DNA of 64,000 nt from Carallia brachiata. Its lineage: Eukaryota > Streptophyta > Magnoliopsida > Malpighiales > Rhizophoraceae. Position 1 is the stretch's first letter; each line of letters opens with the position of its first letter. The position numbers were made by a program, and so were the translations under genes. Below are positions 5,477-56,973 of the stretch, in pieces. The notes below the pieces were generated by a model. It did no database searches. It was not told the origin of the DNA and worked only from the letters and a program-made list of their open reading frames with translations. The stretch covers positions 112,231-176,230 of the forward strand of contig JADCRB010000155.1 of assembly GCA_021464245.1 (NCBI GenBank), read 5' to 3'.

Positions 5477-6218
5477 TGTAACGGGTAAATTTCGAGCCTG
5501 TAACAGTTAGACTCAAAAATACCAAACAAATTACAAATAAAAATTTAAAATTTATGCGAGTTCGATCTTTGGGTAGATCCTCCGATTAATACTCCTGTGT
5601 AATTTAGTCAAGGGCCGTGAAGGCTTAATCTTGACCGAGAGATGTTGAATTTTCACAGCGTGATCTTGAACTGTAGGAAATGGATTCCACTGAGGGCCGA
5701 GGCTTGATCTCAAGTGGATTAGTTGAACTCTGGTGAGTGCCGTAGGAGGCTTAATCCCACTCGGATATTTAAGATTTTAATATCTTGGATTTTTGATCTA
5801 GCGGATCCAACTCAGTGGCATCTAGAGAGCATACACCCAAAATATTTAGAGAGAGAAAGAAAGAATGCAAAGCTTTAGAAGAGAGGATTTTGCTTTGCAT
5901 GGGATGGATTGAAAGGTTTTGAGGGGTGCCTATTTATAGGGTTTTGGGGGAGGATAGAGCCAAAATTCTATCACTTGGATCATACATGACAAGGGCCCTT
6001 TTAGGTGGTTGATGTTGATATCTTGCATGGCTATCAACTTTGCCAACTTTGAATGATGTGGATCTTACATGGCAAGGGTCCTCTTTGGCGGTTGGATTTT
6101 GACATTTTGCATGGTCACCAACCATATGGAAATCATCATTTTCATATGCATGCACTTGTAGCTTTCATGTAGGGCATGCATTGATTTTCTTTTTTTTGGT
6201 GATTTTTTTATGTTTACA
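5477..6218 (-). repeat. Left LTR (3' LTR) of Gypsy element B
   Basis: 742 bp, TG...CA ends. It contains one copy of an about 49-bp module (GGACTCTGGTGAGTGCCG type) that is repeated in the other LTR. A minus-strand polypurine tract abuts its right edge at 6,219-6,232. Confidence 0.9.
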
Positions 6219-6976
6219 AATGCCCCCACTTCAAGGATCGGTAAGGAAGAACTTTGCAGACGTGATCCGTATCAAGTCTTGAAGTCCAGGTTGAAACTTG
6301 AGATGTTCTGATGAACATTGAACGTTGAAGTCTTTTGACTCTGACTATATCTGCTGTTGTTGGATCGCAATAGGAATCCGATACGATTTTGAGAAAGTTA
6401 GCAGCCCAGCCAATATAAAAATTGACATTCTGGCTCCAGGTGCGGTCGAGCTTCTATAGCTCGCAAAGGCTGGCAAATGTTCTTTGAAGTTCCAAAGCTC
6501 TAGTGAGGATGATCCGGTAGGCAAAGAACTTGAACTTTCCCAAGAAGAAGGCCCAGCACTTTGGAACTTCAAGACCTGCATACAGAGAGACTGATTGTAG
6601 TGATGACTCCCGAGTCTGCTCCGACATAAGGAGAGTAGTTGAAACTTCCCTGTACTTCATCGCATCTAAAGGAAGATTAGGATGATTGCAGCGTCTCATC
6701 CCTCTGTGGTAGATGTGAACTAATAAGAGTAGTTGGAACTCCATGACACCGATGGCGTTGAAGACTGAGTTTCGAGGGCTTTAGGGATCCCTCGAGGAAG
6801 ACTACTCCTTATTTTCTTAGTTCGTGCGCCTCCAACTTCTTGATTAAAGAAGAGACAAGTGCAGAGACTAGCTATTTTCTTTTGAGAAGAAGAAGAGCTG
6901 AGGGGTGAGTATTATGGCTCGGACATGCAGGATGGTTGACTGTGCGGTGATACCTGCAGAATTTCGGATCACTGAC
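6219..6976 (-). other. Conserved 3' region of Gypsy B, no recognised gene
   Basis: About 720 bp matching 48,419-49,110 of Gypsy element A closely, although the two LTR pairs differ more. The minus-strand frame at 6,454-6,744 starting MEFQLLLLVHIYHRGMRRC has a recognisable counterpart in element A (within 48,811-49,158), so a short peptide or a structured 3' UTR may be conserved. At about 6,940 the sequence jumps to what corresponds to about 54,376 of element A, marking the deletion that removed pol and the homeobox ORF. Confidence 0.6.
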
Positions 6977-8150
6977 TCAATCCTTGTGATTAGGTTGCTT
7001 ACACTCCGGGAGTTTGATCAACTTAACCTCTAAAAGTTGATCAAAAACGTCTGGAACATCAGAGTCGGGGAATGGATACTTCTTCTGTTCCAACTGTGGC
7101 AACGTCACCTTTCCTTTCTCTTGTTGTTTTGGTTGAGTTGTTGGTGCTGTTGGACTCATTTTTGCTTTAGCCCCAACTTTTATCGGTGAAGCATCAATGG
7201 CCATCACTTCCTTGCCCCCATGTTGTCCCAGTTGGATGGGAATCGTACCTCCAGAGGTTTTGATGCTTTATTTCCATGTCATGCGCGCGAGTTGCTAATT
7301 CCTCAAAAGTTCGAGGTTTGATGCCCTGTAGGATGTATAACAGCTCCCAGTGCATCCCTTGGATGCACATTTCCACAGCAGAAGTCTCCGTACAATGATC
7401 TTTGCAATCTAGATTGAGAGCACGCCATCTGTTGATGTATTCGACAATGGGCTCTCCTTTCCTTTGTTTGGCACTAGTAAGCTCCATCATGCTCACCGTT
7501 CTCCGAGTGCTAAAAAATCTGTTGAGAAACTCTCGTTGTAGCTGTTCCCAACTGTCGATTGATTCTGGTTCAAGGTTTATGAACCACGTGAAAGCGTTCT
7601 CTCTAAGCGAACGAACAAACTGTTTCACCAATAGATCACCGTAAGTCCCTGCATTGTTGTAGGTTTCAACGAAGTGGGCGATGTGCTATTTGGAATCGCC
7701 TCTTCCGTCAAATTGTTGAAATTTGGGCGGTTGGTAGCTCAAAGGCATGTTGAGACTTTCGATCCGTCTGGTGTACGGTTTGACGTATATCTGTAATCCT
7801 TGGGAGGATGAAGCTTGTTGCAGGCGGATCGTATTGGCTATCATATTTTGCAATTGTTGAACCGATAGTGACGCTATAGAATTTGAGAGTGACAGCTGTG
7901 TAGAACTACCTGGGTGTTTTTCAGCATTGAAGACATCGGCTGGTGTCGCTTCTGGAGTGAAAACAGATAGATATTGTCGCTCATTGTGGGTCTTGGGATC
8001 AAGTTGGATCGGAGCTCTTCCTTTGGGGGCAGCGATTTGTTGATCTTTTTCTTCCACAGTTTTGAGCAGTTTAAAAATTCTGTTTTCCAATTCTGCAATC
8101 CTGTCTTCAGCGTTCGTTACGCTTGTTATCGTGATTGTGACAACGTTGAT
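6977..8150 (-). pseudogene. gag of Gypsy element B, broken
   Basis: Minus-strand gag fragments. 7,686-8,090 carries the coiled-coil start (ENRIFKLLKTVEEKDQQIAA) and the PYTRRIESLNMPL region. 7,194-7,631 is the Retrotrans_gag domain ([33 protein letters not shown]). 6,977-7,207 is the Lys/Gln-rich C-terminal piece. A stop codon at about 7,686-7,688 replaces the Gln seen in element A, and frameshifts separate the rest. The protein would form the virus-like particle in an intact relative. Confidence 0.8.
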
Positions 8151-8230
8151 GTTGGATTCCTTCTAATTTTTTTTTTGTAGAGGAGCAAAAGATGGGAGGC
8201 GGAGAGGTCCCACCGAGCGTGCCAAAAATT

Positions 8231-9067
8231 TGTAACGGGTAAATTTCGAGCCTGTAACAGTTAGACTCAAAAATACAAAAATAAATTACAGATAAAAATT
8301 TAAAATTTATGCGAGTTCGATTTCTGAGTAGATCCTTCGATTAATACTCCTGTGTAATTTAGTTAAGGGCCGTGAAGGCTTAATCTTGACTGAGAGATGT
8401 TGAATTTCCACAGCGTGATCTTGAACTGTAGGAAATGAATTCCACTGAAGGCCGAGGTTTGATCTCAAGTGGATTAGTTGAACTCTGGTGAGGGCCGTAG
8501 GAGGCTTGATCCCACTCGAATTGATTGGACTCCGGTGAGGGCGGTAAGAGGCTTGATCCCACTCGAACTGGATGGACTCCGGTGAGGGCCGTAGGAGGCT
8601 TGATCCCACTCGAATATTTAAGATTTTAATATCTTGAATTTTTGATCTAGCAGATCCAACTCAGTGGCAGCTAGAGAGCATACACCCAAAATATTTAGAG
8701 AGAGAAAGAAATAATACAAAGCTTTAAAAGAGAGGATTTTGCTTTGCATGGGATGGATTAAAAGGTTTTGAGGAGTGCCTATTTATATGGTTTTTGGGGA
8801 GGATAGAGCCAAAATTCTATCACTTGGATCATACATGACAAGGGCCCTTTTAGGTAGTTGATGTTAATATCTTGCATGGCTATCAACTTTGCCAACTTTG
8901 AATGATGTGGATCTTACATGGTAAGGGTCCTCTTTGGTAGTTGGATTTTGACATTTTGCATGGTCACCAACCATATGGAAATCATCATTTTCATATGCAT
9001 GCACTTGTAGCTTTCATGTAGGACATGCATTGATTTTTTTTTTTTTTGTGATTTTTTTATGTTTACA
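8231..9067 (-). repeat. Right LTR (5' LTR) of Gypsy element B
   Basis: 837 bp, 95 bp longer than its partner because a module of about 49 bp (ACTCCGGTGAGGGCCGTAGGAGG..) is present three times at about 8,480-8,620 instead of once. The TGGCACGCTCGGTGGGAC string on the minus strand beside it is the probable primer-binding site; I cannot assign the tRNA. Confidence 0.9.
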
Positions 9068-12286: not shown

Positions 12287-12316
12287 ATCTTAAGGATAGT
12301 GTCTTATTTTGCTGCA

Positions 12317-16873: not shown

Positions 16874-17631
16874 TGTTGGAAGAATAAATGATATTTTAAA
16901 ATTCTTGAATCTCACATGGGAAAAAGAAGCCAAGTAGTACTTAATAAAAGAGTTTATAAGGAGACTTGAATCTCATATGGAAAAAAAAATGTTATGTACC
17001 ACTTGTTTATAAACCAATATGTTTCTTACACTTTCACAAAACAAAAGACCTATAAGAGGTCTTGCGCAACCCAGTCTTGGACCCGATAGGAGCAGGCCCA
17101 TAGGACCTTACGCAGTGGACAGGCCTTGGCCAGTCCACCCCTGAACCCAATATTTTTGAGACTATTCAGACTCTTCAGTCAAACTATCTGTCTTTGGTTG
17201 TTGGAAAACTAGCCGTTGCAGTAGTTATAGTCATTCAACCACCATTATTCTGTCCATTATTCACCTTTATGGCCATTATTCACTTTTATGAACATTAAAA
17301 GCTAAACCAGTATATCAGCAACTTATCCTTCTCCAGAAAGAATACTTTTCAGATACTCTTCTTCCTGCACTTTCTTCTTGCTGCATTCTGCTGGGTTAAT
17401 CAAGATTAGAGTTGTTTCTGTCACCTCACTATTTGAAGTGCACATTAGTGGGAATGTCTGTTGTATCCTGGGAGGGTAGCCGCTGCGACCTGCTGCACTG
17501 TCTCGATTTGAAAACGGGGGTAGAAACTATCCTTAAGGACCGTGCCTTGCACGCCTCAGATATTATTTCATATCCTTTATTATTTTATTTGCATCCATTT
17601 TTCTGATAATTTTGCTTATAATTTACTAACA
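16874..17631 (+). repeat. 3' LTR of the Copia element
   Basis: 758 bp, the same length as its partner, with scattered substitutions. It follows a polypurine tract at about 16,864-16,873. The 540 bp between the RNase H stop and this LTR is a non-coding 3' region. Confidence 0.9.
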
Positions 17632-36554: not shown

Positions 36555-38030
36555 GGCATCATTGGGAATCGTCCAAGTGTTGTATGACATGGACATTTTG
36601 AGTAGTCAATTCCTTACTGTCTGGAAAATAGCCCAGTGATACAAAAGGCATAACTGGTTTGGGACGGTGCCATTTGATTTCTATTTGACAGGACCATGAT
36701 TCAGCATCTCTCCAATTGGAACAGATACCAAACCAAAAGACTGCTGAATTTTCTTGATTTTATTGGAGCTTACTTGAGATTCACATTCTTCTTCTTCCAA
36801 TGCAGTAACACCGAGAAGCTCAACATGATGGCTGTCCATTGAGAGAGGTTCTGCTTCCCGTGGTCTGAAAAGCCCACCTCCTCTTACGTCCACCAGATTG
36901 ATTTTCAACGCACCGGAGAAGATTGTGTGACCTTTGGAGACCACTATGACATGAATCATAAAGCACTTTCCAACTAGTGCAGGCCCACTAGCACCCAAAA
37001 CAAGATCCACTTGTGGGTATGGTTCTTCAACCTGGGCAGCTTTTTGACTAGAGAATGCAAGCGTAGGATCCTTTGTTGGAAAGGTCTCAACAAGATCTTC
37101 AAACTTCCAAAGAGGCAATTCATCCATCGAAGCAGGACTTTCAGCTCTGCAACAGATAGTGAGGTGAGGTCCCATTTTCGCAGCAATGCATATGCATTCC
37201 AGCTTCCCACTTTCCTCTGAACAGAACAAATGACTGATCAATGGTGATGTCTTCAATTACATTACATACATCAACATGTATCTATTAGGCACCAGATTGG
37301 GGAATATTTAGGATGAAGAAAGACCAAATAATTACAAAAAAAAAAAAAGACAAATTTGACCTAGTAATACATTGTCATAATAACATAGAAATCAATCATG
37401 AAAAGGATGGACAATTGACTTAGATGTAAGATCTAAATAAGGGGGGCTGAGGTCAGCTCCATAAATTTCATTTTCGCAATACATTAACCAGCACCACGTT
37501 TGGGAAGAGAGATCTAAATGCTAGTTGGGTGGGGAAAGTGCCTGGTAGAAAGAGTACTTAAGATGGCACAGGAGTGCCCACCTGATAGAAAAAGCTCATT
37601 GTCATGAACTATTCCCTTGCCATTTGGAATCCACAAAGAGAGGCCATCCTTTGGGCTTTGAGAGTGCTATATAATTCATAGGACTTTTTAAGAAGAGCAA
37701 TGATTTCAAAGGAATCCTGAAATCTTTTCCCTTCTCCAATGGAATAACAGATATATTCTTCATCAGTTAGACTGAAAAACCAGAAGAAAAATGGCAAGCA
37801 TTACAAAAAGTAAATTATACAAAGAAAACATTCTGAGCAGTAACGGTCAACACTTATAGTTGCATTGCAAGTGTATCCCCTTGCTCAAGTAGTTGGGCAA
37901 ACTGACCCACATATATTGACGGTACCACAGATTGAGCACTGTCAATCTCATCGGAAGCTTCTGACATTGACAATGACAGTTCCAACGAAGTTCTCTTCTC
38001 CTTTAGGTAATGAGCAGCTAACTGCTTAGA
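36555..38030 (-). pseudogene. TRAPPC11-like (foie gras family) gene fragment
   Basis: Minus-strand exon pieces, 5' to 3'. About 37,858-38,025: LKEKRTSLELSLSMSEASDE, SIYVGQFAQLLEQGDTLAMQ. 37,612-37,771: LTDEEYICYSIGEGKRFQD, KSYELYSTLKAQRM, CGFQMARE, ending at a TAG where homologues continue. 36,690-37,216: SGKLECICIAAKMG, ICCRAESPASMDELPLWKFE, ending KIKKIQQSFGLVSVP. After the VSVP motif the frame shifts, but homologous coding (ESWSCQIEIKWHRPKPV) goes on to about 36,560. Introns with proper acceptors remain, so this is a DNA-level copy. Exons between pieces two and three (well over 100 residues in homologues) and both ends are missing. TRAPPC11 serves vesicle tethering at the Golgi; this copy cannot. 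Confidence 0.8.
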
Positions 38031-42175: not shown

Positions 42176-45100
42176 CTAGCTTGAGCAGCACCCTATTCTC
42201 TTCATAGCAGTAACATCTTTACCAACTTCAATTTTCTCTCCTTTGGAAGGAACAGTCGAAGCAGCTCCATCGTCACCAGTCTCCATAGCTTTCCTGCTTA
42301 CGATTCGATATATCTGAGTAAGCACTTCAGAAAATGCATTGTCCACATTAGTAGCGTCCAGAGCAGAAGTTTCCATGAAGTAGAGCGACTCCCGCTCTGC
42401 AAATGATTTTCCGTCCTCAGTTGAGACAGCCACAAGGTGACGAAGATCAGACTTGTTACCAACAAGCATGACCACGATGTTGGGATCTGTGTGATCTCTC
42501 AATTCCCTCAGCCACCTCTCAACATTTTCAAATGTTGAGTGTCGGGTGACATCATATACAAGTAGTGCGCCAACTGCTCCTCTGTAGTAAGCACTTGTTA
42601 TGGCACGATACCTGTACCCATAACAGAGTTTCCAAGTTATTGATGCTAGATGTTACCCTAGCTCTGTGCAGCCAAAGCACAATGGTGCAGAAAAACAAGC
42701 AACATTATAAGCAAATGGAGACTCAGTCGGTTGACTCTTCTAACGGTTTTAGCAAAGAAAACTTATGGACTCCACATTAGCATGCTAGTTTTGAGTAAGT
42801 TAAACCATATATATTTTTCGGTAAAATAACTAAAATAGCTCCAGTCAAATATTTGCCTTAATTCCTACTATTACAATACTAGTCAATTATTCCCACAACA
42901 CTAATAAAACTTCCATTCTGCCATAATGATGGCTGACTTTCCCCTGCCAATGCCACCAGAACCTCAAACCAGCTCTGCCAACACACAACAAGCCAGGTTA
43001 CGGTTTTCCAGATGTCAAGCACATAATCACCATTAAGAAAAACCATGTTAATCCATCGCATGCATACAGCGGCCACTAACGACCACCTTTACTTTTGCTA
43101 TCACTAAAGAATTGCACATGACACACATATGTACATCATAGAAACCATTAAACTGCTTCTATTTAGAAAAGCAATTATAATGTGACAAAGTAATAAATGC
43201 AATCACAGATAGTGTAGAACAGAAGAGCCCTGTTTTGATGGCATAAAATGCCATAAGTGCTACTGTTTAATTGACACATCAGCTCATTGGGAGTATTTTA
43301 AGAAATCATCCTTTGGACAGATAAAGCTGTGTTAACCACAAGAGTCAATGAACCAATGAGGTGTACTTGATACTGTCACAAAATTTTGTTCAAATGACAA
43401 AATAACTCAGAGTTGATGGGCTAAAGTTAGAACTTAAAGCAAAGGGGGATTTTCTTTTAAAGTAAATATAGAACTAGTCTGAGATCATTCAGGAAGTGAA
43501 ACTAAAATGCTTGAACTTAAGCCCACAGTCATAACCCCAAATAAAGAAAAAGAAGAAGAAGAAGATTCAGCTAATTTATTACAGAAAAACAATCTGAATT
43601 AAATAAATTATTTTGAACTTGCACGCACTGTTCTTAACCTGGGCAAATCTGTTGGAAAAAAATATTCTGGGTACTACTTGGGGCAGGCAAGTGATGCCAA
43701 GGGCGGGATCTCCAAAAACTATTAGGCAAAAGTTATCATGCATTTAAAACAGACTCTTCAATGAGTAGAGAAGAAAAAGCTGGAATGGGTGAAGGCAAAA
43801 AATGTAACAGAATAATTCCAATTTGTGCACGATGAAAAGTTACAAATATTCTTGTGCTTCTAGCACGACTGGTTGGGACACCCTTGTTGGAACCTCTAGG
43901 TTCTATGTTCAAGTTCTAATGACTATGTTATCGTTTCTGTTCTTGGCCTCTCAGCCTCCTTGGTAACCACAACAACCCAAAAAAAAAAAAACACACACAC
44001 ACACACGTGTCAAATGGTTCAATAATGCCAAGCAAAGATTAGTGCAGCATGATGACCATACGGGCACAAAGTACATAAATATCATTGCCACTTGCAATGC
44101 TGAATTCAAGCTAGATCATATATCACATGCAAATGGATAAAATAGACTAGTGCTAGCCTCCTGAAAATTAAATTTAAATATAAAATTACAAACTAGAATA
44201 TCATATAATGTCTCTATATAAAAAGTAGAAAGCAGAAAGTAACACCGTATGCCAATTGGTAAGACAATACCTAATTGACATAACATATGACCATTTCGCA
44301 TGCAAAACACCTAGCAACTATAACAAACACCCCTGCCCAACCCAATTCATTTTTATGACCAATAAGTGATGAGGATTTTCCATGTGCAATATTGCCAAAT
44401 CATCGTGACTACCAAACCTCTAAAACTTTGATACCCAAGCTTATTCCAATTCTAATAGAAATGCCACCAATCCGCACTGTTAAGGGCGAAATAGAAAGAC
44501 CAAAATACATCAGGGCATATGTCAATCTGCTTTTCAAAAATATAATGTAGTACATCTATGATCTATCGCGCACATGTAGTGGACAGATGGAGAAAAAGAA
44601 AGATGAGCGAAAGGAGCAAATATATAGAGAAAATGGCAAACAGGACAATCCAATGACCAAATCACAAATTCTTGAAAATAAAAATTAAAAACAAAAGAAA
44701 TTGTAGGATTTCAACAGCTAGATAAGTCCAATATCTGTTTCTCACTGTACAAAATATTCTTGGTAATAACAGCAACCAAATTTCCAGGAACAGGATTCAA
44801 ACTCAAATTCAAAAAGCAGTCCTAGTTGATCTCACATTATTTATATTGATGATACAGAATAAGTCATATGCAAACAATATGCACATTTAAAAAAAAATTA
44901 ATTGCAAAGAAAAGAAAAAAAAAATCTCCTGATCCACCAGTCTGATCAAGAAATCCAAATCCAAATCACCAAGAACCAAGATCATCACAACTTCCCAGAA
45001 AATTTTTTTTTTTTTTTTTTTTTGCTAAAGGAAAATAAAGCACAATTAACACACTAGATCCAAAATCTTCCTAACTTCATTTCTTTTTCTTTTTTTTTTT

Positions 45101-45659
45101 TTTTTTCTTTTAAAGCCACCTTCAGCAGGAACCAAAAAGCCAGCAGCTAAAATGGCTAATTGGAAGCTCTAGCCTCTAGCTCACAGGAGCCTCCAGATCA
45201 CAGTAACACAAAACTACTTAACGCCACCAAAACTCCAAAAGCAAACAAGAAGAGCCCAGATCACGATTTACAGAAACACCCAGATCATAAAAATAGCATC
45301 AAAACAGCAAGCAACAAAAGCATCCTAAGAAAAAAAAGATGGGCAACAAAAGAAGAAAACCCAGATCCAAAAACCCATTACCATTGAATTGAAGAAAGTA
45401 AAAGCGAGAGAAAGAGGGAAAGAAAGAGAAGGAGGGACCTCTCCTGGCCAGCAGTATCCCAAATCTGGGCCTTAACGACCTTGGAATCGACATTCAAGCT
45501 GCGAGTAGCGAACTCGACGCCAATGGTGGATTTGGACTCCAAGCTGAACTCGTTGCGAGTGAACCTCGATAGCAGATTTGACTTTCCCACCCCTGAGTCC
45601 CCTATCAACACCACCTTGAATAGATAATCGTAGTCATCTTCTGCTCTGTACCCTCCCAT
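42176..45659 (-). CDS. RABA1/Rab11-like small GTPase, intact, two exons
   Basis: Exon 1 is 45,439-45,659 and exon 2 is 42,176-42,611, joined in phase 2 inside Arg74 across a 2.8-kb intron; 218 residues, the usual length. All GTP-binding motifs are intact: GDSGVGKS (20-27), TIGVEF (45-50, effector loop), WDTAGQE (67-73), GNKSD (125-129), ETSAL (154-158). The C-terminus GCCSS carries the two cysteines for geranylgeranylation. RABA proteins act in trafficking between trans-Golgi, endosomes and plasma membrane, often in polarised growth and cell-plate formation. The exon break after the GQER motif matches the family. The 5' leader contains a GA repeat (CT on the plus strand). No defect seen. Confidence 0.95.
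42612..45438 (-). other. Large intron of the RABA gene
   Basis: 2,827 bp, GT...AG on the minus strand. It contains a possible SINE at 43,866-43,990, several poly(T)/poly(A) runs (45,005-45,022, 45,089-45,106) and no coding sequence. Confidence 0.85.
43866..43990 (+). mobile_element. SINE-like element in the RABA intron
   Basis: A-box-like GCACGACTGGTTGGGA is followed about 40 bp later by a B-box-like ATGTTCAAGTTCTAATG. The sequence ends in CCCAAAAAAAAAAAAA and a (CA)n run. The arrangement fits a tRNA-derived SINE of about 120 bp. No target duplication was found. Confidence 0.4.
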
Positions 45660-47392: not shown

Positions 47393-47726
47393 CTGCCTGT
47401 AGCCTTCCTGACCCTAAATTTGCACCGGCTACCTTCAGATCTCCGATCGATGTTTTTTTCCCTGAATATCACCATCTTGCAAACATATCTTTTCCTTTCA
47501 ACGCATGAACCGCGTCTTGTTGAAACAGGATATTATTCCATTCACATATGCGCCAAACCAATTGGATCTCCACAAATCCAAACCAAACACACATCTAGAA
47601 CGCCTGTCTCACTATCTAAGTTTTGCCTCCCAAAACCCTCTTTGGTTAGAGGTCACGTCCCAACTTGAAGCACATAGACACGTCGATCACTGAAGAGCTC
47701 AAAATCCACTACCACTGCTACCAAAC
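47393..47726 (-). mobile_element. Copia remnant, left of the Gypsy insertion
   Basis: GC-richer sequence than its surroundings, matching in its last 145 bp (47,579-47,723) the DNA right of the Gypsy element (56,829-56,973). By continuity it belongs to the Copia remnant whose LTR and primer site are at 58.4-59.05 kb. No conserved domain is readable. Confidence 0.45.
47579..47723. repeat. 145-bp direct duplication, left copy
   Basis: Aligns without gaps to 56,829-56,973 with five differences by eye, all transitions. The left copy ends three bases before the left LTR of Gypsy element A; the right copy starts exactly at the end of the right LTR. Confidence 0.9.
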
Positions 47727-48418
47727 TGTAAGGCGTAAATTTCGAGTCTAAAACAATTAAACTCGAAAATACAAAAATAAATTACAAATAAAAATTGTAA
47801 AGTAAAAGAAAATTTACGTGGGGTCGATCTCCGTAGATCCTCCGATTAGTGTTCCTTTTTTTGACTCCGTCAAGGGCTGCACGAGCTTGATCTTGACAGA
47901 AATAATTTCCACCGCTTTTTCTTGAACTGAATATACTGAAACTGTATCTGATTTGGACGTTTTGACTACGTTTTGGAACCGTAGAGATTTGATCTGAGCC
48001 GATCTGGCTTAATTTCACCGAGGGTCGAATGGATTTGTTCTCGGATGAGCTGTCTGGATTTTGCTGAGGGTCGTATGAGACTTAATCCCAGCCGGATTTG
48101 TAATATTTCGATTTTTTTTTTTACTATCTCTCTTTTTTTTCTTTTTTTTTTCTTTTTTCTTCCGTTTGCTTTTTCTTTTTTTTTTTTTTTTTTTTGCTTC
48201 GCTGCCTCTTCTGCGCTTTTCTTTTTCTTCTCTACTTCTGCTGGCTCCCCTCTGCATTTCATTTAATTGGGAAGGCCATTTATAGGCCTCCCTCATGCCT
48301 GCCTGCCACCAACCAAATGGTTGGTGGCATTAATTAGGTTGGCAGCTACCAACCTTCAAGGTTGGCGGCTGCCAACCATATATATATATATATATTTTTT
48401 TTATAAAATTCGTTTACA
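47727..48418 (-). repeat. Left LTR (3' LTR) of Gypsy element A
   Basis: 692 bp. Contains poly(T)-rich blocks at 48,110-48,195 and a cluster of short palindromes at 48,295-48,380 (ACCAACCAAATGGTTGGT; GTTGGCAGCTACCAACCTTCAAGGTTGGCGGCTGCCAAC in part), then a TA repeat. Confidence 0.93.
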
Positions 48419-49110
48419 AATGCCCCCACTTCAAGGGTCGGTAAGAAAGATTTTTACAGAGATGATTCGAACCGAGTCTTGAAGTCCAGTTTGAAATTTG
48501 GAAAGTCCTGATGAATATTGAATCTTGGAGTCTTCTATCTTTGACCATGCCTGCTGTTGTTGGATCGCAATAGGAATCTGATACGATCTTGAAAAAATTA
48601 GCAACCCAGCCAATATAGAAATTGAATCCTTGGCTCCAGGTGCATTCGAACTTCCATAGCCCGCAAAGGATTTTTTTATATCTCTTAAAGTTCCAGAGCT
48701 CTGGTGAGGATGATCCGGTAGGCAAAGAACTTGAACCTCCCCAAGAGGAAGGCCCAGCACTTTGGAACTTTAGGACTTGCGCACAGAGAGACTGACTGTA
48801 GTGATGATTCCTAAGTCTGCTTCGACGTAAGGAGAGTAGTTGGAACTTCCCCGTACATCGCGGCATCCAAAGGAAGATTAGGATAATTGCAGCGTCTCAT
48901 CCCTCTGTAGTAGATGTGAACTAAGGAGAGTAGTTGGAACTCCATGACACCGATTGCGTTAGGGATCCCTCGAGGAACTACTCCTTCTTTTCTTAGCTGT
49001 GCGCCTCCAACTTCTTGATCGAAGAACTTCCTGAGACAAGTGCAGAGACTAGCCATTTTCTTTTGAGAAAGAAGAGCTGAGGGGTGAAGTATTATAACTC
49101 GGAATGCAAG
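48419..49110 (-). other. Conserved 3' region of Gypsy element A
   Basis: Between the homeobox ORF and the 3' LTR. It matches 6,219-6,940 of Gypsy element B along its full length, although B lost everything from here to gag. Minus-strand frames (48,414-48,866; 48,811-49,158) are not recognised and not consistently open in both copies, so a structured RNA or packaging/3' end signal is as likely as a protein. Confidence 0.6.
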
Positions 49111-49251
49111 ATATATATATACATGCGATAAAGGGTTTTTTTTTTTTTGAAAAGTCAAAAAGAAGGTACGCAGATTCGAGTAGGGCCATCCACATCCCTT
49201 TCCTGCATAAGAGACAAAAGAGGCAGCGGCTGACGCGTGTCACGAAAGTCG

Positions 49252-49323
49252 TTACCGTGTGTTGCAGAAGTCGTTGCCGTGTGCTGCAGAAGTCGTTGCC
49301 GTGTGCTGCAGAAGTCGTTGCAC
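49252..49323 (-). repeat. 22-bp tandem repeat beside the homeobox ORF
   Basis: About three copies of GTGTGCTGCAGAAGTCGTTGCC in direct order, the first slightly diverged. They lie immediately 3' of the homeobox ORF stop codon in the sense of the element. Confidence 0.85.
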
Positions 49324-49341
49324 CTTATCTTGTCGGCCGTC

Positions 49342-50088
49342 CTAGCGGGGCCCGAGGTGCAACTCTAAGTCAAGCTCGACCTCGTCTGGTGGGCCGATGA
49401 TGTTGACGTCGCTTTCCGGCTGGTTGATGCTACCGGAATATTCTGGAAAGAGAGGCAAAGTTTCGCCGGAATAACTCCTTTCTGCTAGAAAAGTTCCTCC
49501 TAGACTTAAGTATCTAGGAGGGATGAACCCTTGGCTGACTCCGTAAGACCACCAGGACCAGCATGCATTCTCCCATGGGCTACGACTTTGATGAACACAC
49601 CGTGGAGAGACCATTGCAGTGGAAGAACTCGGACCTGCTTCATTTGAGGGCGAAGCTGTACCGGTGGGATTTACTATCGGAACGACAGACTGTTCTTTGG
49701 AAGAAGCAGTTCTCAGTGCTGGTTTCTTTCTACTTCTCTGATTCTGGAACCAATAAAACACATTTTTTTCCTTCGATTGCCCCGAGCGGGCGCAATCGTG
49801 AGACAATTGGTGAATTTGAGATGCACTAGGAATAATACCTCCATTGTTGTGGAAGACTTCCTCCAAAATTTCCAGTTGTGCCATGGTCGGTTGCCACCTT
49901 GCGCGGGGTGATCTTTCTTCGCCCCTTGTCTTGAGGTTCTGCAACTGGTTCCATCTTTCTTGTGGAAGAGGAGCAAAGGTCTTGGTATGTGGTGAAGATC
50001 GGTTGAGACTGATGCTGAGTTTCAGACTCAAATCCTCCGTCGCTTTTATATTTTTGGGCCGTTCACAGTTTATACTCATGCGGGCCAA
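49342..50088 (-). CDS. WUSCHEL-related (WOX-type) homeodomain protein carried by a retrotransposon
   Basis: An uninterrupted 248-codon ORF in the sense of the Gypsy element, 390 bp after the integrase stop. Residues about 61-124 form an enlarged homeodomain of WOX type: RARWQPTMAQLEILEEVF (helix 1), GGIIPSASQIHQLS (helix 2 region), KEKNVFYWFQNQRSRKK (recognition helix with the WFQN core). Ser/Pro-rich residues 128-165 follow. The C-terminus DEVELDLELHLGPR contains an LxLxL EAR-type repression motif. WOX proteins are plant-specific nuclear regulators of stem cells and embryo patterning; this one would bind TAAT-like DNA and recruit co-repressors if made. No intron is visible. Start uncertain: residues 1-60 have no family similarity, and a TATAAAAG motif lies within them (50,043-50,050, minus strand). 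The next in-frame Met is residue 69, inside the homeodomain. Confidence 0.85.
   Translation of the reverse strand: MARMSINCERPKNIKATEDLSLKLSISLNRSSPHTKTFAPLPQERWNQLQNLKTRGEERSPRARWQPTMAQLEILEEVFHNNGGIIPSASQIHQLSHDCARSGQSKEKNVFYWFQNQRSRKKPALRTASSKEQSVVPIVNPTGTASPSNEAGPSSSTAMVSPRCVHQSRSPWENACWSWWSYGVSQGFIPPRYLSLGGTFLAERSYSGETLPLFPEYSGSINQPESDVNIIGPPDEVELDLELHLGPR
50043..50050 (-). promoter_or_regulatory. TATA box-like motif upstream of the homeodomain coding region
   Basis: On the minus strand TATAAAAG, preceded by A-rich and followed by GC-rich sequence. It lies 37 bp after the annotated Met codon and about 140 bp before the homeodomain codons. It could be the relict promoter of the captured gene; alone the motif is weak evidence. 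Confidence 0.35.
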
Positions 50089-50149
50089 GAGTTGGATTGG
50101 ATTTTGAACTTAGGTTCTGGACTGTGTTTGGGACTTGGAATTTTTGGGT

Positions 50150-50260
50150 TTTGGGCTTTGGATTGGATTTGGGTCGAGTGTTTGGGCTTCTAGACTTGGG
50201 TTTGTTTGGATTTGGGTCGAGTGTTTGGGCTTCTAGACTTGGATTTTTGGATTTGGTTTT
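50150..50260 (-). repeat. Direct repeat between integrase and homeobox ORF
   Basis: A segment of about 45 bp (GGATTTGGGTCGAGTGTTTGGGCTTCTAGACTTGG, shown here in two parts on the plus strand) occurs twice in a row, surrounded by many TTGGG/TTTGGGC words. A T-rich tract (50,358-50,445) follows toward the integrase. Confidence 0.75.
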
Positions 50261-50477
50261 CAGGCTTTTGAGTTGGACTCTGAATTGGGCTCAAGTGTTT
50301 GGGCTTGGATTTTCGGGTTTGGGTCTTCGCTTGGACTTTCAGATCGAGACTTTCGAACTTTTTTTTTTTACTTTTTTTTTTGATTTTTTTGATTTTTTTT
50401 TGATTTTTTTTTTATTTTTTTCTTTTTTGATTTTTTTTTTTTTTAAACATATTTACACATAATACTGTTTCAGAAAT

Positions 50478-52313
50478 TTACCGTTGATCGGGCCGATTCG
50501 GACGCCTTCTAGGTCTGACAGCATGTAAGCATTGTGAGTATAGGCCTCCTGCACTAGGTATGGCCCCGTCCCATTTGGAAGTAAGTTTGTCACTAGGCCG
50601 ATGCTTCATGTTGATGGGCCGTCGTACAGCAAGAACAAGATCTCCAATTTGAAAAAATCGAAGGCGGACCCTGCGGTTGAATGTGTTGGTGAGCCGGGCT
50701 TGGTAGCACTCAAGTTGCTGTTGTGCTTCGAGCCTCCTTTCATCGAGGGCTTCTAACTCATCCAGACGTAGGCGAGCATTCTCCTCCTGTGTGAGTCCTT
50801 CCAGAACAGCCATGCGTAGGGATGGAATCTGTGTTTCCAACGGCAGTATTGCTTCGACACCGTAGACAAGTGAGTATGGCGTCGCCTGTGTTGGAGTCTG
50901 GTAAGTTGTACGATACGCCCATAATGCCTCCAGAATTCTGTCATGCCAATCTCTTTTGGATTTAGAGACTACCTTCCGCAATAGGTTGCATGAGGCCTTG
51001 TTGAATGCTTCGGCCAAGTCATTTGCTGGGGCATTGTACATGGATGACTTGTACTGCTTGAACTTGAACTTCTCGCAGAGCTTGTCGATCAAGCTGTTGT
51101 AGAATTGCTTGCCATTATCAGTGATGATGAATCGAGGGACTCCATAGCGATAGATCAGCTGAGTCCGGATAAAATTGGCAACATGCTCTTTCTTTACCTC
51201 TCTAAGTGGAATGGCTTCAGCCCATTTTGAGAAGTAGTCGGTTGCTGCGAGGATGTACAGGTGACCTAGGGATGACTTTGGCAAGGGCCCCACTAAGTCG
51301 AGACCCCAAGCTTCAAAGGGCCAGGATGAGACAGTTGGATGCAGTGGCTCCGGTGGTTGATGTATGTAATTGGCATGAAATTGACAAGCTTGACAGGTTT
51401 TAGCAAACTCAATTGAATCACGTACCATAGTTGGCCAGTAGTATCCCATCCTTCTGAGTTGGAAGTGCAACTTAGGCCCCGATTGATGTCCGCCACAAAC
51501 ACCAGAATGTGCCTCAGCGAGAGCCTGTTTTGCCTCTTCATTGGCTAGGCAGCGAAGTAGAACTCCATCAAAAGACCTTCGATACAGAGCATCCTTGAGG
51601 TATATGAAGCGGGGAGCTCGTCGTTGAATTTCTGTCTTATGACGACGATCTTCGGGCAGCTTCCCGTGCTGTAGATAGTCAATGATTGGTTGGCGCCAAT
51701 CTTCGTCCTCCGCGAGATGTATAGATACAGCGTTGGCTGCTGTAGTTTCTTCATCATCCTTCTGCGGCACTATCCATTTCTGGCATACGGCAACAACTGT
51801 AGCCTGGATTTCTGACTTTGCAAGAGAGGTGGCCAGGTTAGCCAATGCGTCTGCCTGAGTATTTTCTCGTCGAGGCACATGCTCCAAGGTGATGCTTTCA
51901 AATTCATCCATTAGCTGTCGAGCACGTTGATGGTAAGGTGCAAGGTCCTCTTTCTTCACGTCATACAACCCTGTAAGTTGGTTGATGACGAGTTGGGAAT
52001 CTCCATGGACTTCTATAGTTGGAATCTTCATATCGACAGCCATTCGGAGACCAATGATCAAAGCCTGGTATTCAGCAACATTATTTGAACATAACTCACT
52101 AAGAATGATAGCATATGGTAGTATTTGTCGTTGAGGAGTGACAAACACTATGCCAGCACCAGCACCATCACGTCTTGCTGCACCATCAAAGAACATCGTC
52201 CATGGTGGTAGTGTCTCAATGTAAAAGACCTCTTCATCTGTAAGATCATCTGTGAACTCCCAATCTGAAGAACCATCCATGAAGGGACAATGCTTCGTGA
52301 CCGGTTGTTGCAT
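50478..52313 (-). CDS. Archaeal-type RNase H and integrase of Gypsy element A
   Basis: 611 codons open. Residues about 38-165: RNase H with the catalytic set Asp (MFFDGAARRDG), Glu (VAEYQALIIGL), Asp (VHGDSQLVINQL) and Asp (TQADALANL); it degrades RNA in RNA:DNA hybrids. Residues about 265-310: HHCC zinc domain (HSGVCGGHQS ... CQACQ). Integrase core: Asp in LDLVGPLP, Asp in IITDNGKQF, Glu in DLAEAFNK, then the GVPRF and WAYRTTYQTPT motifs. A basic tail of about 20 residues ends the frame and looks slightly altered. The first ~35 residues are the remnant junction with RT, in a different frame from the RT fragment. All catalytic residues are present. Confidence 0.9.
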   Translation of the reverse strand: MQQPVTKHCPFMDGSSDWEFTDDLTDEEVFYIETLPPWTMFFDGAARRDGAGAGIVFVTPQRQILPYAIILSELCSNNVAEYQALIIGLRMAVDMKIPTIEVHGDSQLVINQLTGLYDVKKEDLAPYHQRARQLMDEFESITLEHVPRRENTQADALANLATSLAKSEIQATVVAVCQKWIVPQKDDEETTAANAVSIHLAEDEDWRQPIIDYLQHGKLPEDRRHKTEIQRRAPRFIYLKDALYRRSFDGVLLRCLANEEAKQALAEAHSGVCGGHQSGPKLHFQLRRMGYYWPTMVRDSIEFAKTCQACQFHANYIHQPPEPLHPTVSSWPFEAWGLDLVGPLPKSSLGHLYILAATDYFSKWAEAIPLREVKKEHVANFIRTQLIYRYGVPRFIITDNGKQFYNSLIDKLCEKFKFKQYKSSMYNAPANDLAEAFNKASCNLLRKVVSKSKRDWHDRILEALWAYRTTYQTPTQATPYSLVYGVEAILPLETQIPSLRMAVLEGLTQEENARLRLDELEALDERRLEAQQQLECYQARLTNTFNRRVRLRFFQIGDLVLAVRRPINMKHRPSDKLTSKWDGAIPSAGGLYSQCLHAVRPRRRPNRPDQR

Positions 52314-52932
52314 CGACTGTGATCTCCATTATGGGCAACGGAAAGTCATCTTTCGGACATGCCCTGTTAAGGTCTCGAAAATCAACACATACCCTCAACT
52401 GTCCATTCTTCTTTCTTACCGGGACAATGTTGGCAATCCACGTTGGGTAGGTGACCTCTCGGATGAAGCCAGCATTGATCAGCTTGTTCACCTCCTCCTC
52501 GATTTGTGGAATGAGTTCCGGGCGGAACCGTCGTTGTGGCTGCTTGACAGAACGAACACCCTTCTTTACTGCTAGACGATGCACCGCAATTTTTGGGTCA
52601 AGTCCAGGCATTTCTTTGTAACTCCATGCGAACACGTCCCTGTATTGACTTAATACCTGAACATATTCTTGCTCTTCTTCTGCAGTAAGTAAAGCACTTA
52701 CAAATGTAGGTCGAGGATCTTCCGGAGAGCCAAGATTGACCTCCTTGAGTTCATCAACAGTTGCTTGGCCACCATCTTCAAGTTCCGGGGGAGCCTCCTT
52801 CACTTCACCATCTGATGAGTCAGACTCAGCCTCCTCGCTAATTGTGACATGAAATGCAGAACCTCTGACTTCACCTTCTTTGTTTGACGGGATAAGCCTG
52901 TCTTGTTGGTGTGGTGGTGATGGCACGTGCAT
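52314..52932 (-). pseudogene. RT N-terminal fragment of Gypsy element A
   Basis: Fingers region only: LINAGFIREVTYPTWIANIV, KKNGQLRVCVDFRDLNRACP, DFPLPIMEITVDATTGHE. After GHEALS a one-base insertion shifts the frame, and the sequence then passes straight into the spacer before RNase H. The palm with the YxDD catalytic box, the thumb and the first RNase H are deleted. The product could not polymerise DNA. Confidence 0.88.
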
Positions 52933-53935
52933 CAGCTGCTCGGCTTCGGCTCTTTAGCGTGATCCGCACAGGTGACTTCTCCTGATAGCCTAAGCCAGGT
53001 CGGGACTGTGATGTTTGAGAAGTAGCGCCATGTGTGGACGGCAGCGTACCCATTGTGCTCGGGTTTGAGAAGTCATAGCCCGCCTTTGCCAAAAGCTTGT
53101 ATGCATTAGGATCAAATCCTTCATGTGTTCTTCTTTCTGGAAGTGAGCCGCCTTCGACTGCCCCCGTGTGTGGTTTGACGAAGCCTTTTAATGGTTTTGA
53201 AGACAAAACCGGCTCAATCTTTGGTATCGGCAGAGTGTAAGTCTCCTTCAGGTTGTGCAGCTCCTTTGTTTTGGGTTGGCTATGACCTTGCTCCTGTTTA
53301 AGATCAATACAATAAGAGAAAGGGGGTTGACCTTCTGAGCGTCGTGACTTCGGCACATAGCGTAGGACTGGAGTGGAGCTTGAAGATGCAACATCCTTCG
53401 GACGGAGTTCAGCAGGCTGTGGCAGCTTTTCATTTGTTGGAGCCTGGGGTTGGCATTGGCAGGTTCTTCGACAGCTTTTCCCTTTTTGTGGATGCCCCCA
53501 GTCCAAGTAGCTTTTGATGGAATGATCTCCGGATTGTCTGTGTCAGTGTAGAAGACTGCATCCGCCAAATGTGATTCAGCATCATCGAACGGCTTTAAGT
53601 CAGCATTGACCTTTTGAACGCCACCATTGTAGTACTTGAAGCACTGATGCAGGCTTGAGAGCACAACTCCATTTCCATGAATCCACGGTCGTCCTAGCAA
53701 CATCTTATATGTGGTACGTGCATCAATCACGTGAAATAGAGTGCTAGAAGTGAGATTACCGATAGTTAGCTCCAAGCGAATCATCCCAATTGCTTTCTGT
53801 CCTCCTTGATTAAAGCCATGAATCATCAAGCGGCTGTCTGATAATTCATCAATGCCGATGCCGAGCTCCTTTATGGTGGATTTTGGGATAATATTGACTG
53901 CTGAGCCATCGTCGATCAGAATACGTCGACCTTCT
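52871..53935 (-). pseudogene. Aspartic protease and linker of Gypsy element A
   Basis: The protease core reads RRILIDDGSAVNIIPKST at about 53,870-53,930 (catalytic Asp in DDGSA), followed by LLGRPWIH near 53,690. Frames 53,248-53,829 and 52,871-53,506 overlap, so at least one frameshift separates protease from the linker to RT. Processes Gag-Pol in intact relatives. Confidence 0.8.
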
Positions 53936-55947
53936 GTTCTTTCACATAGCCTGATACATACAGCGGCCGATTGTGGGGTTTGGACCCCAGCAGGAGATCC
54001 TCATCTGAAAATGAGATAGCAGAGTAACATCCGACGTGATTTTGGTCCGCCTGTTGCTCCGCTGAGTTAGACTCATTTGATGGCTGTGATTCAGCTGAGG
54101 TCTGGAGAGTATTGCTGACTTGATTTTGCCACACTTCTGTTGATTGCAAAGCTATAAACAGCTGAGGGTTAGCGAGAAGGGTTTGGAGAGCTTCATATAC
54201 CTTCTCCGTTGTCGACTTTTTGTTGTCGAGCGGCTCCTCCTTTGGTGTGTCACTCTTCTGATGGTTTTGAAGTGATGGTGGTCTGGTTTGCGAGGTTATG
54301 CCTTCCTGGTCCAGAATGATTTTATTCTGGCTTTGAGCTTCATGATTAGCTCCTTCAGGACGAAACATTTCTCGGTTGGATGACTTACTATCCGGTGATA
54401 TTTGCAGAATCTGGATCGCTGACTCGATCCTTTTCATTCGGCCGCTTGCACTCTGGGAGTTCGATCAGCTTCGCCTCCAAGAGTTGTTCAAGAATGTCGG
54501 GGACGTCTGAGTCGGGGAATGGATACTGCTTCTGCTCCAACTCTCGCAATGTCACCTTCCGCCTTTCCTGTTGTTTTGGCTGAGTTATTTGGGTCGGAGG
54601 ATTTACCTTAGCTTTGGCGCCCACTTTTACTGGTGCGGCTTCAACAGTCATCACTTCTTTCCTTTTCCGGACTGTTGGGTTTCTTAATCTCCCTTCTGCC
54701 CCCTTGCTGGTCCAACTGGATGGGAACCGTGCCTCCGGAAGTCTGGATGCTTATCTCCATATCATGTGCGCGGGTCGCCAGTTCTTCGAAAGTTCGGGGT
54801 TTGACACCCTGCAGGATGTATAACAGCTCCCAATGCATTCCCTGGATGCACATCTACGGCAGAAGTCTCCGTCAGGCGATCTTTGCAGTCCAAGCTGAGG
54901 GCACGCCATCTGTTGATGTATTCGACAACGGGCTCTCCTTTCTTTGTTTGGTGCTGGTAAGCTCCATCATACTTACCGTCCTTCGAGTGCTGAAAAATCT
55001 GTTGAGGAACTCTCGTTGTAGCTGTTCCCAACTGTCGATCGATTCTGGTTCAAGATTTATGAACCAGGTGAAAGCGGTCTCCCTGAGTGAACGAACAAAC
55101 TGCTTCACCAAGAGATCTCCGTAAGTCCCTGCGTTGTTGCAGGTTTCAACGAAGTGGGCGATGTGCTGTTTGGGATCGCCTCGTCCGTCGAATTGTTGAA
55201 ATTTGGGCGGCTGGTAGCCCAAGGGCATGTTGAGACTTTCGATCCGTCTGGTGTACGGTTTGACGTACATCTGTGATCCTTGGAAGGATGTAGCTTGTTG
55301 CAGTCGGATCGTATTGGCTATCATTTCCTGCAATTGTTGAACAGATAGCGAAGCTACAGAATTTGAGGGTGGCAGCTGTGTAGAACTACCTGGTCGCTTT
55401 TCTGCAGGGAAGACGTCGGCTGGTGTGGCTTCTGGAGTGAAACCGGGTGGATATGGTTGCTCCTCGCGGATTTCGGGATCAACTTGGATCGGGGCTTTTC
55501 CTTTGAGAGCTGCGATCTGTTGATCTTTTTCCTCCACGACTCTGATCAGCTGCAAAATTTTGTTCTCCAATTCTGAAATCTTTCCTCTGTGCTGGTTGTG
55601 TTGGTCATCATGACGGCAACAGATGAGGCTCCGGGAAAGACTGGGGGAGAAAACTCTTCTGATTCTTCTGTGTGAGTCGGATTTTGTTGAGCAGGCTTCG
55701 TCGTGTTGCCCCCGACTTCGATCGGGGTGGGTGATCGACTCCTCCATGCGGCAAGAGAGTCAGGGGAGAGATCCTGTTGTGCAAGCTGTGGACTCTCCAT
55801 TTCGACATTTTGTCGGGTTTGGACGGCAAGAAATTGTGTCCGTCCCCGGGTTTCTGGACCTGCGTACCCAGGTAGGGTAGTTGATGCAGGCAATGGAGCC
55901 GTTGCCTTCTTTTTTGTGGCAGCAGTTGTACTCCTTTTCGGTGCCAT
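53916..55947 (-). pseudogene. gag of Gypsy element A, frameshifted
   Basis: Starts MAPKRSTTAATKK at 55,947. A coiled coil (ELENKILQLIRVVEEKDQQI) and the Retrotrans_gag domain ([33 protein letters not shown]) follow, then [21 protein letters not shown] and a Gln/Ser-rich C-terminal part. Frame changes near 55,590, 54,935, 54,850, 54,650 and 54,430 divide it. It is far closer in sequence to gag of element B at 7.0-8.1 kb than random Gypsy gags would be, confirming one family. Confidence 0.88.
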
Positions 55948-55964
55948 TTGATGTGCTGAACACC

Positions 55965-56085
55965 TGTAAAATTTTTTTTTTTTTTTTACTTTTTTTTTTA
56001 CTTTTTACTTTTACTTTTTTTTTACTTTTTTACTTTTTTTTTACTTTTTACTTTTACTTTTTTTTTACTTTTTTTTTTTACTTTT
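55965..56085 (-). repeat. T-rich TTTTTAC tandem repeat in the leader
   Basis: About 120 bp of imperfect (T)nAC units between gag and the primer-binding region. In element A only; element B has a short T run here. Confidence 0.9.
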
Positions 56086-56136
56086 AAGGAACAAGAGATG
56101 GGAGGTGAAAATGTCCCACCGAGCGTGCCAAAAATT

Positions 56137-56828
56137 TGTAAAGCGTAAATTTCGAGTCTAAAACAATTAAACTCGAAAATACAAAAATAAATTACAATAA
56201 AAATTGTAAAAGTAAAAGAAAATTACGTGGGGTCGATCTCCGTAGATCCTCCGATTAGTGTTCCTTTTTTGACTCCGTCAAGGGCTGCACGAGCTTGATC
56301 TTGACAGAAAAATTTCCACCGCTTTTTCTTGAACTGGATAGACTGAAACTGTGTCTGATTTGGAGTTTTGACTACGTTTAGGAACCGTAGAGATCGATCT
56401 GAGCCGATCTGACTTAATTTCACCGAGAGTCGAATGGACTTGTTCTCGGATGAGCTGTCTGGATTTTGCTGAGAGTCGTATGAGATTTAATCCCAGCCGG
56501 ATTTGTAATATTTCGATTTTTTTTTTTTACTATCTCTCTTTTTTTTTCTTTTTCTTTTTTTTTCTTTTTTCTTCCGCTTGCTTTTTCTCTTTTTTTTTTT
56601 TTTCGCTTCGCTGCCTCTTCTGCGCTTTTCTTTTTCTTCTCTGCTTCTGCTGGCTCCCCTCTGCATTTCATTTAATTGGGGAGGCCATTTATAGGCCTCC
56701 CCCATGCCTGCCTGCCACCAACCAAATGGTTGGTGGCATTAATTAGGTTGGCAACTGCCAACCTTCAAGGTTGGCGGCTGCCAACCATATAATATATATA
56801 TGGTTTTTTTTTATAAAATTCGTTTACA
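56137..56828 (-). repeat. Right LTR (5' LTR) of Gypsy element A
   Basis: 692 bp, same length as its partner, with about 11 substitutions and a few 1-bp indels in the first ~400 bp. The probable primer-binding site (TGGCACGCTCGGTGGGAC on the minus strand) lies at 56,111-56,128, the same as in element B. Confidence 0.93.
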
Positions 56829-56973
56829 CAAACCAAACACACATCTAGAACGCTTGTCTCACTATCTAAGTTTTGCCTCCCAAAACCCTCTTTGGTTAGA
56901 GGTCACGTCCCAACTTGAAGCACATAGACACATCGATCACTGGAGAGCTCAAAATCCACTACCACTGTTGCCA
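56829..56973. repeat. 145-bp direct duplication, right copy
   Basis: Partner of 47,579-47,723. It begins at the first base after the right LTR of Gypsy element A, with CAAAC, and continues into sequence (56,974-57,020) absent from the left side. Confidence 0.9.

What the first reader, a model, noticed from the sequence alone, without database searches (positions are those of the whole stretch)
49342..50088. A WUSCHEL-type homeobox ORF inside a Gypsy retrotransposon
Seen: an open 248-codon frame between integrase and 3' LTR, in sense, with a full WOX-like homeodomain (NVFYWFQNQRSRKK recognition helix) and a C-terminal LxLxL motif. Known: Tat-lineage elements often carry extra ORFs after integrase, mostly of unknown function; WOX proteins control stem-cell and embryo fate. 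I know of no described element carrying a WOX gene. Inference: a host regulator was captured, probably through its mRNA since no intron is present, and is now dispersed by transposition. The frame is intact while gag and RT are broken, hinting at recent capture or at selection. An element-encoded repressor-type homeodomain could alter host meristem programmes, or the element's own expression in the germ line.
Basis: partly seen in the sequence, partly recalled or inferred. Interest (0 to 1): 0.93.

Follow-up and report, generated by a model that had tools for sequence, protein, structure and literature searches.

The report
Stem-cell gene carried by a retrotransposon
A plant jumping gene carries, in reading order and just after its integrase, an open but much-changed copy of WUSCHEL, the gene that keeps plant stem cells going; similar cases have been reported in Vigna, so this looks like another, possibly older, instance of a rare kind rather than a first.

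Summary
A Ty3/gypsy element of Tat type lies on the minus strand (47727-56828) with 692-bp LTRs, a CAAAC target duplication, PBS and PPT. Between integrase and 3' LTR, in sense, is an open frame (ATG 50079, stop 49342, 245 aa). It has a homeodomain, a WUS-box (TLPLFP) and a C-terminal LxLxL, in the order found in WUSCHEL. The homeodomain has WUSCHEL's spacing and keeps 8 of 10 DNA-contact or anchor residues, the other two being K/R swaps. It is a captured WUS-clade sequence.

Recent capture is unlikely: the homeodomain keeps 27 of 63 WUS consensus residues (database WUS median 61) while the LTRs differ by about 3.3%. And LTR-borne WOX is already reported: a 2023 meeting report describes over 1000 WOX copies in Vigna riukiuensis, mostly within LTRs. 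Rosa's 381 WOX genes are unexplained.

Copy number, selection, host and expression could not be tested, because the host-genome search did not answer in 22 tries. A role as a TOPLESS-recruiting repressor is inference, and the tree cannot place the ORF.

The parts
47727..56828 (-). Ty3/gypsy element of Tat type, this copy not autonomous
   Evidence: LTR pair, TSD, PBS, PPT; domains
56137..56828 (-). 5' LTR, 692 bp
47727..48418 (-). 3' LTR, 692 bp
47722..47726 (.). target-site duplication CAAAC
56829..56833 (.). target-site duplication CAAAC
56113..56130 (-). primer-binding-site-like sequence starting TGG, 6 nt inside the 5' LTR
   Evidence: by eye; the primer tRNA was not identified
48419..48434 (-). 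polypurine tract region
   Evidence: by eye
54872..55747 (-). gag frame
   Evidence: PF03732 2e-07
53251..54000 (-). open stretch with weak aspartic protease match
   Evidence: PF13975 0.0028, below Pfam cut-off
52249..52953 (-). N-terminal RT piece; frame break and large deletion follow
   Evidence: by eye; no Pfam match
50478..52313 (-). RVT_3-type RNase H and integrase frame, 611 codons
   Evidence: PF13456 1.7e-24, PF00665 2.1e-10, PF17921 5.2e-09
49342..50079 (-). WUS-type homeobox ORF from the first ATG, 245 aa and stop
49711..49905 (-). homeodomain, residues 62-126 of the 248-codon frame
49438..49461 (-). WUS-box TLPLFPEY
49354..49374 (-). C-terminal EAR-like LDLELHL
50005..50031 (-). 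N-terminal LxLxL-like stretch LSLKLSISL
   Evidence: by eye on the translation
49231..49318 (-). about four units of a 22-nt tandem repeat downstream of the ORF
   Evidence: family D8
5477..9067 (-). related internally deleted element without the homeobox region, TSD CCTTC

Best explanation
A coding sequence of a WUSCHEL-clade homeobox gene was captured by a Tat-type Ty3/gypsy element and has been carried as a sense accessory ORF between integrase and 3' LTR for a long time, over more than one round of transposition. It encodes a nuclear DNA-binding protein: the homeodomain binds DNA as WUS does, and the WUS-box and C-terminal LxLxL recruit TOPLESS-type co-repressors. Expressed from the element's RNA (spliced or internal message), it would act as a repressor on host meristem genes or on the element's own transcription, which would favour transposition in cells that give rise to the germ line. 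Shown: anatomy, domain content, motif order, divergence. Inferred: long residence, expression, repressor activity, benefit to the element.
For: Element bounded by LTRs, TSD, PBS and PPT with the ORF inside, in sense. Homeodomain by profile, solved relatives and fold: model pLDDT 86-92 in the blocks of residues 71-120; the 9 Foldseek hits at E <= 0.001 are all WUS-HD or STENOFOLIA. WUS-box 6 of 6 and LxLxL kept. W-P to NV spacing is 41, as in 117 of 121 database hits. Of the 10 contact or anchor residues counted, 8 are identical to AtWUS and 2 are K/R swaps, against 17 of 53 identical elsewhere in the 63 aligned (Fisher p 0.0066); contact list from PMC7203112 (passages), its R100 lying outside the aligned stretch and not counted. 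Great divergence (27 of 63 WUS consensus; median 61 and lowest 38 in the 116 of 120 sequences that could be read) with young LTRs (K2P 0.033) puts most of the divergence before this insertion. TPL recruitment by WUS-box and EAR-like motif: PMC8329861 (passages).
Against: Only one copy seen; the host genome was never searched. The tree cannot place the ORF: its branch is the longest, 2.44 against a median of 0.029, and the best tree puts it on the side of the recalled WOX9, WOX11 and WOX13 (support 82/71); joining it to WUS is not rejected (p-AU 0.44). Of 44 columns at least 95% conserved in WUS it has lost 23. GC by codon position is flat in the ORF (0.496, 0.488, 0.476), unlike the integrase frame. 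No enrichment of WUS-type TGAA motifs in the 5' LTR; the 3' LTR has 2 spaced TGAA pairs (9 of 200 shuffles reach that). A related element without the region has LTRs and a TSD, so the ORF is not needed in cis. The donor may already have been divergent before a late capture. Start codon context and splice signals were not tested.
Confidence: 0.55

Rival explanations
1. Recent passenger: an already divergent host WUS-type paralogue was picked up once by this element or a near ancestor, as in Bs1 and other transduction cases, and has no role in the element.
For: LTRs are young, so an unselected ORF could still be open; the long pol frame is open too. Divergent WUS-like paralogues exist in plants: Rosa WUS-like proteins, and PMC11405225 reports 364 rose-specific WOX genes (passages). 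A related element in the window lacks the region and still has LTRs and a TSD. PMC7264820 says that transduced genes usually sit in one or few copies and usually in sense (part 1 of 3 read).
Against: No close donor among the proteins searched: the single-sequence search returned 4 hits at 33-41% identity. The ORF is more divergent (27 of 63) than any of the 116 homeodomains measured (lowest 38); but that count left out P0004 and 4 of 120 sequences that did not fit the pattern, Rosa paralogues among them. Host genome not searched.
Confidence: 0.35
2. A WUS retrogene (processed copy) landed inside the element by LINE-type retroposition and is a separate nested insertion.
For: No intron in the frame; A-runs (sense strand) lie at 50431-50444 and 49136-49148 on either side of the ORF.
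Against: No flanking direct repeat beyond low-complexity runs between 49060-49160 and 50080-50520; the longest other match is 8 nt. A/T-runs occur at several other places in this element. No empty-site copy was available for comparison.
Confidence: 0.08
3. A chance open frame with a spurious homeodomain match.
For: The codon-position GC signal is flat.
Against: Pfam 8.9e-12, PDB 1.7e-12, three motifs in the WUS order, confident three-helix model.
Confidence: 0.01

Closest known systems
LTR-borne WOX copies in Vigna marina and V. riukiuensis (PMC10714607, meeting report, passages read; the preprint it cites is not held)
   Same: WOX-family genes mostly within identical LTRs with target-site duplications
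   Different: Element lineage, position of the WOX gene and WOX subclass are not given in the passages read; reported as a rapid burst with over 1000 copies, whereas here one copy with a much-diverged ORF is seen
WUSCHEL and the WUS/modern clade of WOX proteins
   Same: Homeodomain with WUS spacing, WUS-box, C-terminal EAR-like motif, most DNA-contact residues
   Different: 27 of 63 homeodomain consensus residues kept, other regions hardly alignable, element-borne, no intron in the frame, helix-3 tail QRSRKK instead of HKARER
Tat/Retand-type Ty3-gypsy elements with additional ORFs (PMC11963269, PMC7264820, PMC6317226; parts and passages read)
   Same: Additional ORF between pol and 3' LTR; tandem repeats in that region; RVT_3-type RNase H before integrase (the last as marker of Tat: partly recalled)
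   Different: In the Retand elements of PMC11963269 most ORFs of that region are antisense, TRP28 is the rule, and none of the sense ORFs there encode a known domain
Rosa-specific WOX expansion, 381 genes in R. chinensis (PMC11405225, passages and section 24)
   Same: Many divergent WOX copies over the chromosomes, many with a WUS-box
   Different: Mechanism unexplained there; 'transpos' occurs 0 times in its main text; the nine Rosa proteins looked at are closer to host WUS than this ORF
Bs1 and other gene-transducing plant retrotransposons (named in PMC7264820)
   Same: Host coding sequence carried inside an LTR element
   Different: Different genes; described there as present in one or few copies

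Membership tests
WUS-clade WOX protein | WOX-type homeodomain | tested here: met
   Pfam 8.9e-12; WUS and STENOFOLIA the only clear PDB relatives; fold
WUS-clade WOX protein | WUS-box C-terminal to the homeodomain | tested here: met
   TLPLFP in the ORF and in the 34 aligned WUS-type proteins, chosen from 121
WUS-clade WOX protein | C-terminal EAR-like LxLxL (WUS itself) | tested here: met
   LDLELHL; L239 and L241 invariant in A2
WUS-clade WOX protein | WUS-type homeodomain length (one extra residue) | tested here: met
WUS-clade WOX protein | Groups with WUS in a tree | tested here: inconclusive
   Long branch, unplaced; WUS grouping not rejected, p-AU 0.44; in the best tree it falls on the side of the recalled WOX9, WOX11 and WOX13, support 82/71
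Ty3/gypsy LTR retrotransposon | LTR pair, TSD, PBS, PPT, gag and pol domains | tested here: met
   RT only as a piece seen by eye
Tat-type element | Additional (archaeal-type, RVT_3) RNase H before integrase | tested here: met
   PF13456 1.7e-24; many relatives carry RT_RNaseH-type, RVT_3 and integrase domains together. That this marks Tat is recalled; a passage of PMC6317226 mentions a domain described in the Tat lineage
Tat-type element | Placement by reverse transcriptase tree | not tested
   RT is mostly missing in this copy
Retand element | Antisense TRP28 ORF between pol and 3' LTR | tested here: not met
   The two plus-strand ORFs of at least 90 codons in the region (98 and 121 aa) give no Pfam match; shorter ORFs not tested
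LTR-borne WOX as in Vigna | WOX gene within LTRs with TSD | tested here: met
LTR-borne WOX as in Vigna | Many copies in the genome | tested here: inconclusive
   The genome search did not answer in 22 tries; one copy in the window

The most novel reading that the evidence does not exclude
A Tat-type lineage has domesticated WUSCHEL as its own accessory gene, kept under selection over many transpositions, to repress host or element genes in stem cells so that new insertions enter the germ line; WOX amplification in Vigna and Rosa would be independent or related cases of the same strategy.
Probability: 0.2. Interest if true: 0.92.

Novelty: new member of a known kind. Interest (0 to 1): 0.6.

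Why it matters
Plant germ cells come from shoot stem cells, so a mobile element that makes a WUSCHEL-like repressor would touch the tissue that decides whether its insertions are inherited. With Vigna (LTR-borne WOX) and Rosa (unexplained WOX expansion), this case suggests that WUS-clade genes are captured by retrotransposons more than once, and it gives a concrete element anatomy to look for in Rosa and elsewhere. It also warns surveys of the WOX gene family that some 'WOX genes' may be transposon cargo.

Tried and rejected
Recent capture: judged unlikely on divergence against LTR age. Nested insertion with its own target duplication: no flanking repeat found. Self-regulation through LTR binding sites: in the 5' LTR the counts of TGAA, TGAATGAA, TCACGTGA and TTAATGG are at or below the shuffled mean, and TAAT (12 against 7.5) is reached by 17 of 200 shuffles; the 3' LTR has 2 spaced TGAA pairs (9 of 200); the pol-LTR stretch shows no excess; so little support. 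Intactness as proof of selection: not accepted, because a 611-codon pol frame is open too. WOX phylogeny: a first regular expression matched 0 of 121 homeodomains, so the tree used the first 100 residues for the WUS rows and is superseded; neither places the ORF. Relatives in other collections: none in plasmids, viral contigs or prokaryote genome contigs, as expected for a plant sequence. Host species: not identified; the best named integrase hits are Prunus, Malus, Cucumis, Salvia and Lycium at 67-69%. Dropped rows: P0004 was left out of the list and 4 of the remaining 120 sequences did not match the pattern; alignment A2 used 34 of the 121 fetched hits and the tree used 18.

Full report
What was checked. 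The frame at 50088-49342 on the minus strand is open for 248 codons; its first ATG is codon 4 at 50079. Pfam finds one domain, Homeodomain, at 8.9e-12. Against solved structures the clear relatives are WUSCHEL (1.7e-12, ungapped over 63 residues) and STENOFOLIA (8.7e-12, one gap); three further matches have E of 0.3 or more. A model built from 35 aligned sequences has pLDDT 86-92 in the blocks of residues 71-120, with three homeodomain helices, and is low elsewhere (mean 57.9). The nine Foldseek hits at E <= 0.001 are WUS-HD or STENOFOLIA.

Which WOX. Besides the homeodomain the ORF has TLPLFPEY, with a complete WUS-box, and ends in LDLELHLGPR, an LxLxL (EAR-like) motif; the order homeodomain, WUS-box, EAR is that of WUSCHEL. 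TLPLFP is identical in all 35 rows of the alignment, the ORF and 34 proteins chosen from 121 fetched hits. The WUS structure paper describes a single-residue insertion (Y54 in WUS) at the end of helix 1 (PMC7203112, passages). This points to WUS itself as the donor. A tree of 65 columns does not settle it: the ORF is the longest branch (2.44 against a median of 0.029), and the best tree puts it on the side of the recalled WOX9, WOX11 and WOX13 (support 82/71). Holding it with WUS costs 0.60 log-likelihood units (p-AU 0.44).

The element. On the minus strand the 5' LTR is 56828-56137 and the 3' LTR 48418-47727, 692 bp each, TGT...ACA, with CAAAC on both outer sides, a TGG-starting PBS-like sequence 6 nt inside and a G-rich PPT region. 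The LTRs differ by 22 substitutions in 683 aligned sites (18 transitions, 4 transversions; K2P 0.033) and 12 gap openings, several in A-runs. Inside are a gag piece (PF03732), a protease match below the Pfam cut-off, a truncated RT recognised by eye (frame break and large deletion; no Pfam match), and an RVT_3 RNase H plus integrase frame of 611 codons. Its D339, D399 and E435 (the catalytic triad, as I recall it) are invariant in all 15 rows of A3. Then come the homeobox ORF, about four units of a 22-nt tandem repeat and the PPT. By eye the integrase frame is broken near its C-terminus. This copy is therefore not autonomous. RVT_3 RNase H before integrase is, from recall, typical of Tat elements. 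The two antisense ORFs of at least 90 codons in the pol-LTR region give no Pfam match, so the TRP28 ORF that is the rule in Retand is not seen.

A second element of the family lies at 5477-9067 with its own TSD CCTTC. It is 81% identical over 1208 columns in the gag part and 83% over 731 columns in the 3' part, and lacks the counterpart of 49113-54377, hence most of pol and the homeobox ORF. The ORF is therefore not needed in cis for movement; what its ancestor held is unknown.

Age of the capture. Database WUS homeodomains are nearly fixed: in the 116 of 120 sequences that fitted the pattern, the median agreement with the consensus is 61 of 63 residues and the lowest 38; the ORF agrees at 27. 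Of 44 columns at least 95% conserved in WUS it keeps 21. P0004 and four sequences with other spacing, Rosa paralogues among them, were not in that count. The insertion itself is young. So most of the divergence happened earlier, either in the element lineage or in an already odd donor gene. Of the ten DNA-contact or anchor positions counted, eight are identical to AtWUS and two are K/R swaps, against 17 identical of the 53 other positions (p 0.0066); the contact list is from PMC7203112 (passages). Constraint on DNA binding therefore lasted during the divergence. I read this as long residence under some selection, but the divergent-donor alternative stands. Against my reading, codon-position GC in the ORF is flat, and the openness of the frame alone proves nothing at this LTR age.

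Mechanism. WUS-box and EAR-like motif recruit TOPLESS co-repressors in WUS and STF (PMC8329861, passages). The likely product is a nuclear DNA-binding repressor. How it would be translated (spliced message or internal start) is not known. The idea that it acts on the element's own LTR found little support in motif counts, so host meristem targets are the better guess. None of this is shown.

Prior work. Searches listed, by title and start of abstract, no paper on a homeodomain ORF in an LTR element. The lists were capped (20 of 26; 20 of 331; 8 of 17; none). PMC11963269 (part 1 of 5 of the text, section 11 part 1 of 2, and a term search; [quoted passage not shown] The tenth search led to a 2023 meeting report, PMC10714607 (passages): Vigna marina and V. 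riukiuensis hold many WOX copies, over 1000 in the latter, mostly within identical LTRs with TSDs. The preprint it cites is not held. PMC11405225 (passages and section 24) counts 381 WOX genes in Rosa chinensis, 170 in R. multiflora and 105 in R. rugosa, offers whole-genome duplication as a hypothesis, finds 0 collinear genes and asks for further evidence; 'transpos' occurs 0 times in its main text. So LTR-borne WOX is a known if barely described kind.

What could not be done. The host genome search did not complete (22 calls), so copy number, dN/dS, host WOX genes and species remain open. Protein relatives of the ORF: 4 among 180 candidates with the single sequence; 3407 among 7980 scored candidates with the WOX-wide profile, of which the best 120 were listed, all with the Pfam homeodomain and none recognisable as element-borne from the listing.

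Noticed in passing
proteins P0004, P0125, P0127, P0128, P0137, P0149, P0159, P0222, P0234: Nine short WUS-like proteins of Rosa chinensis and R. rugosa, on contigs of several lengths, most with a WUS-box. With the 381 WOX genes of PMC11405225 this could be transposon dispersal; the word stem 'transpos' is absent from that paper's main text.
   Followed up: partly
47579-47723 and 56829-56973: A 145-bp direct duplication (96.6% identical) flanks the element on both outer sides next to the 5-bp TSD, as if it had landed in a pre-existing tandem duplication.
   Followed up: partly
31992-36065: Tandem array with a period near 400 bp and roughly 69-76% identity between shifted copies.
   Followed up: no
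11529-17631: A further repeat pair that looks like LTRs (11529-12286 and 16874-17631, 92.5% identical) encloses copia-like ORFs on the plus strand (lineage by eye).
   Followed up: no
42176-45659, 28722-29318, 36681-37256: Likely host genes by eye: a Rab-type GTPase, a WRKY factor and a trafficking-type protein fragment.
   Followed up: no
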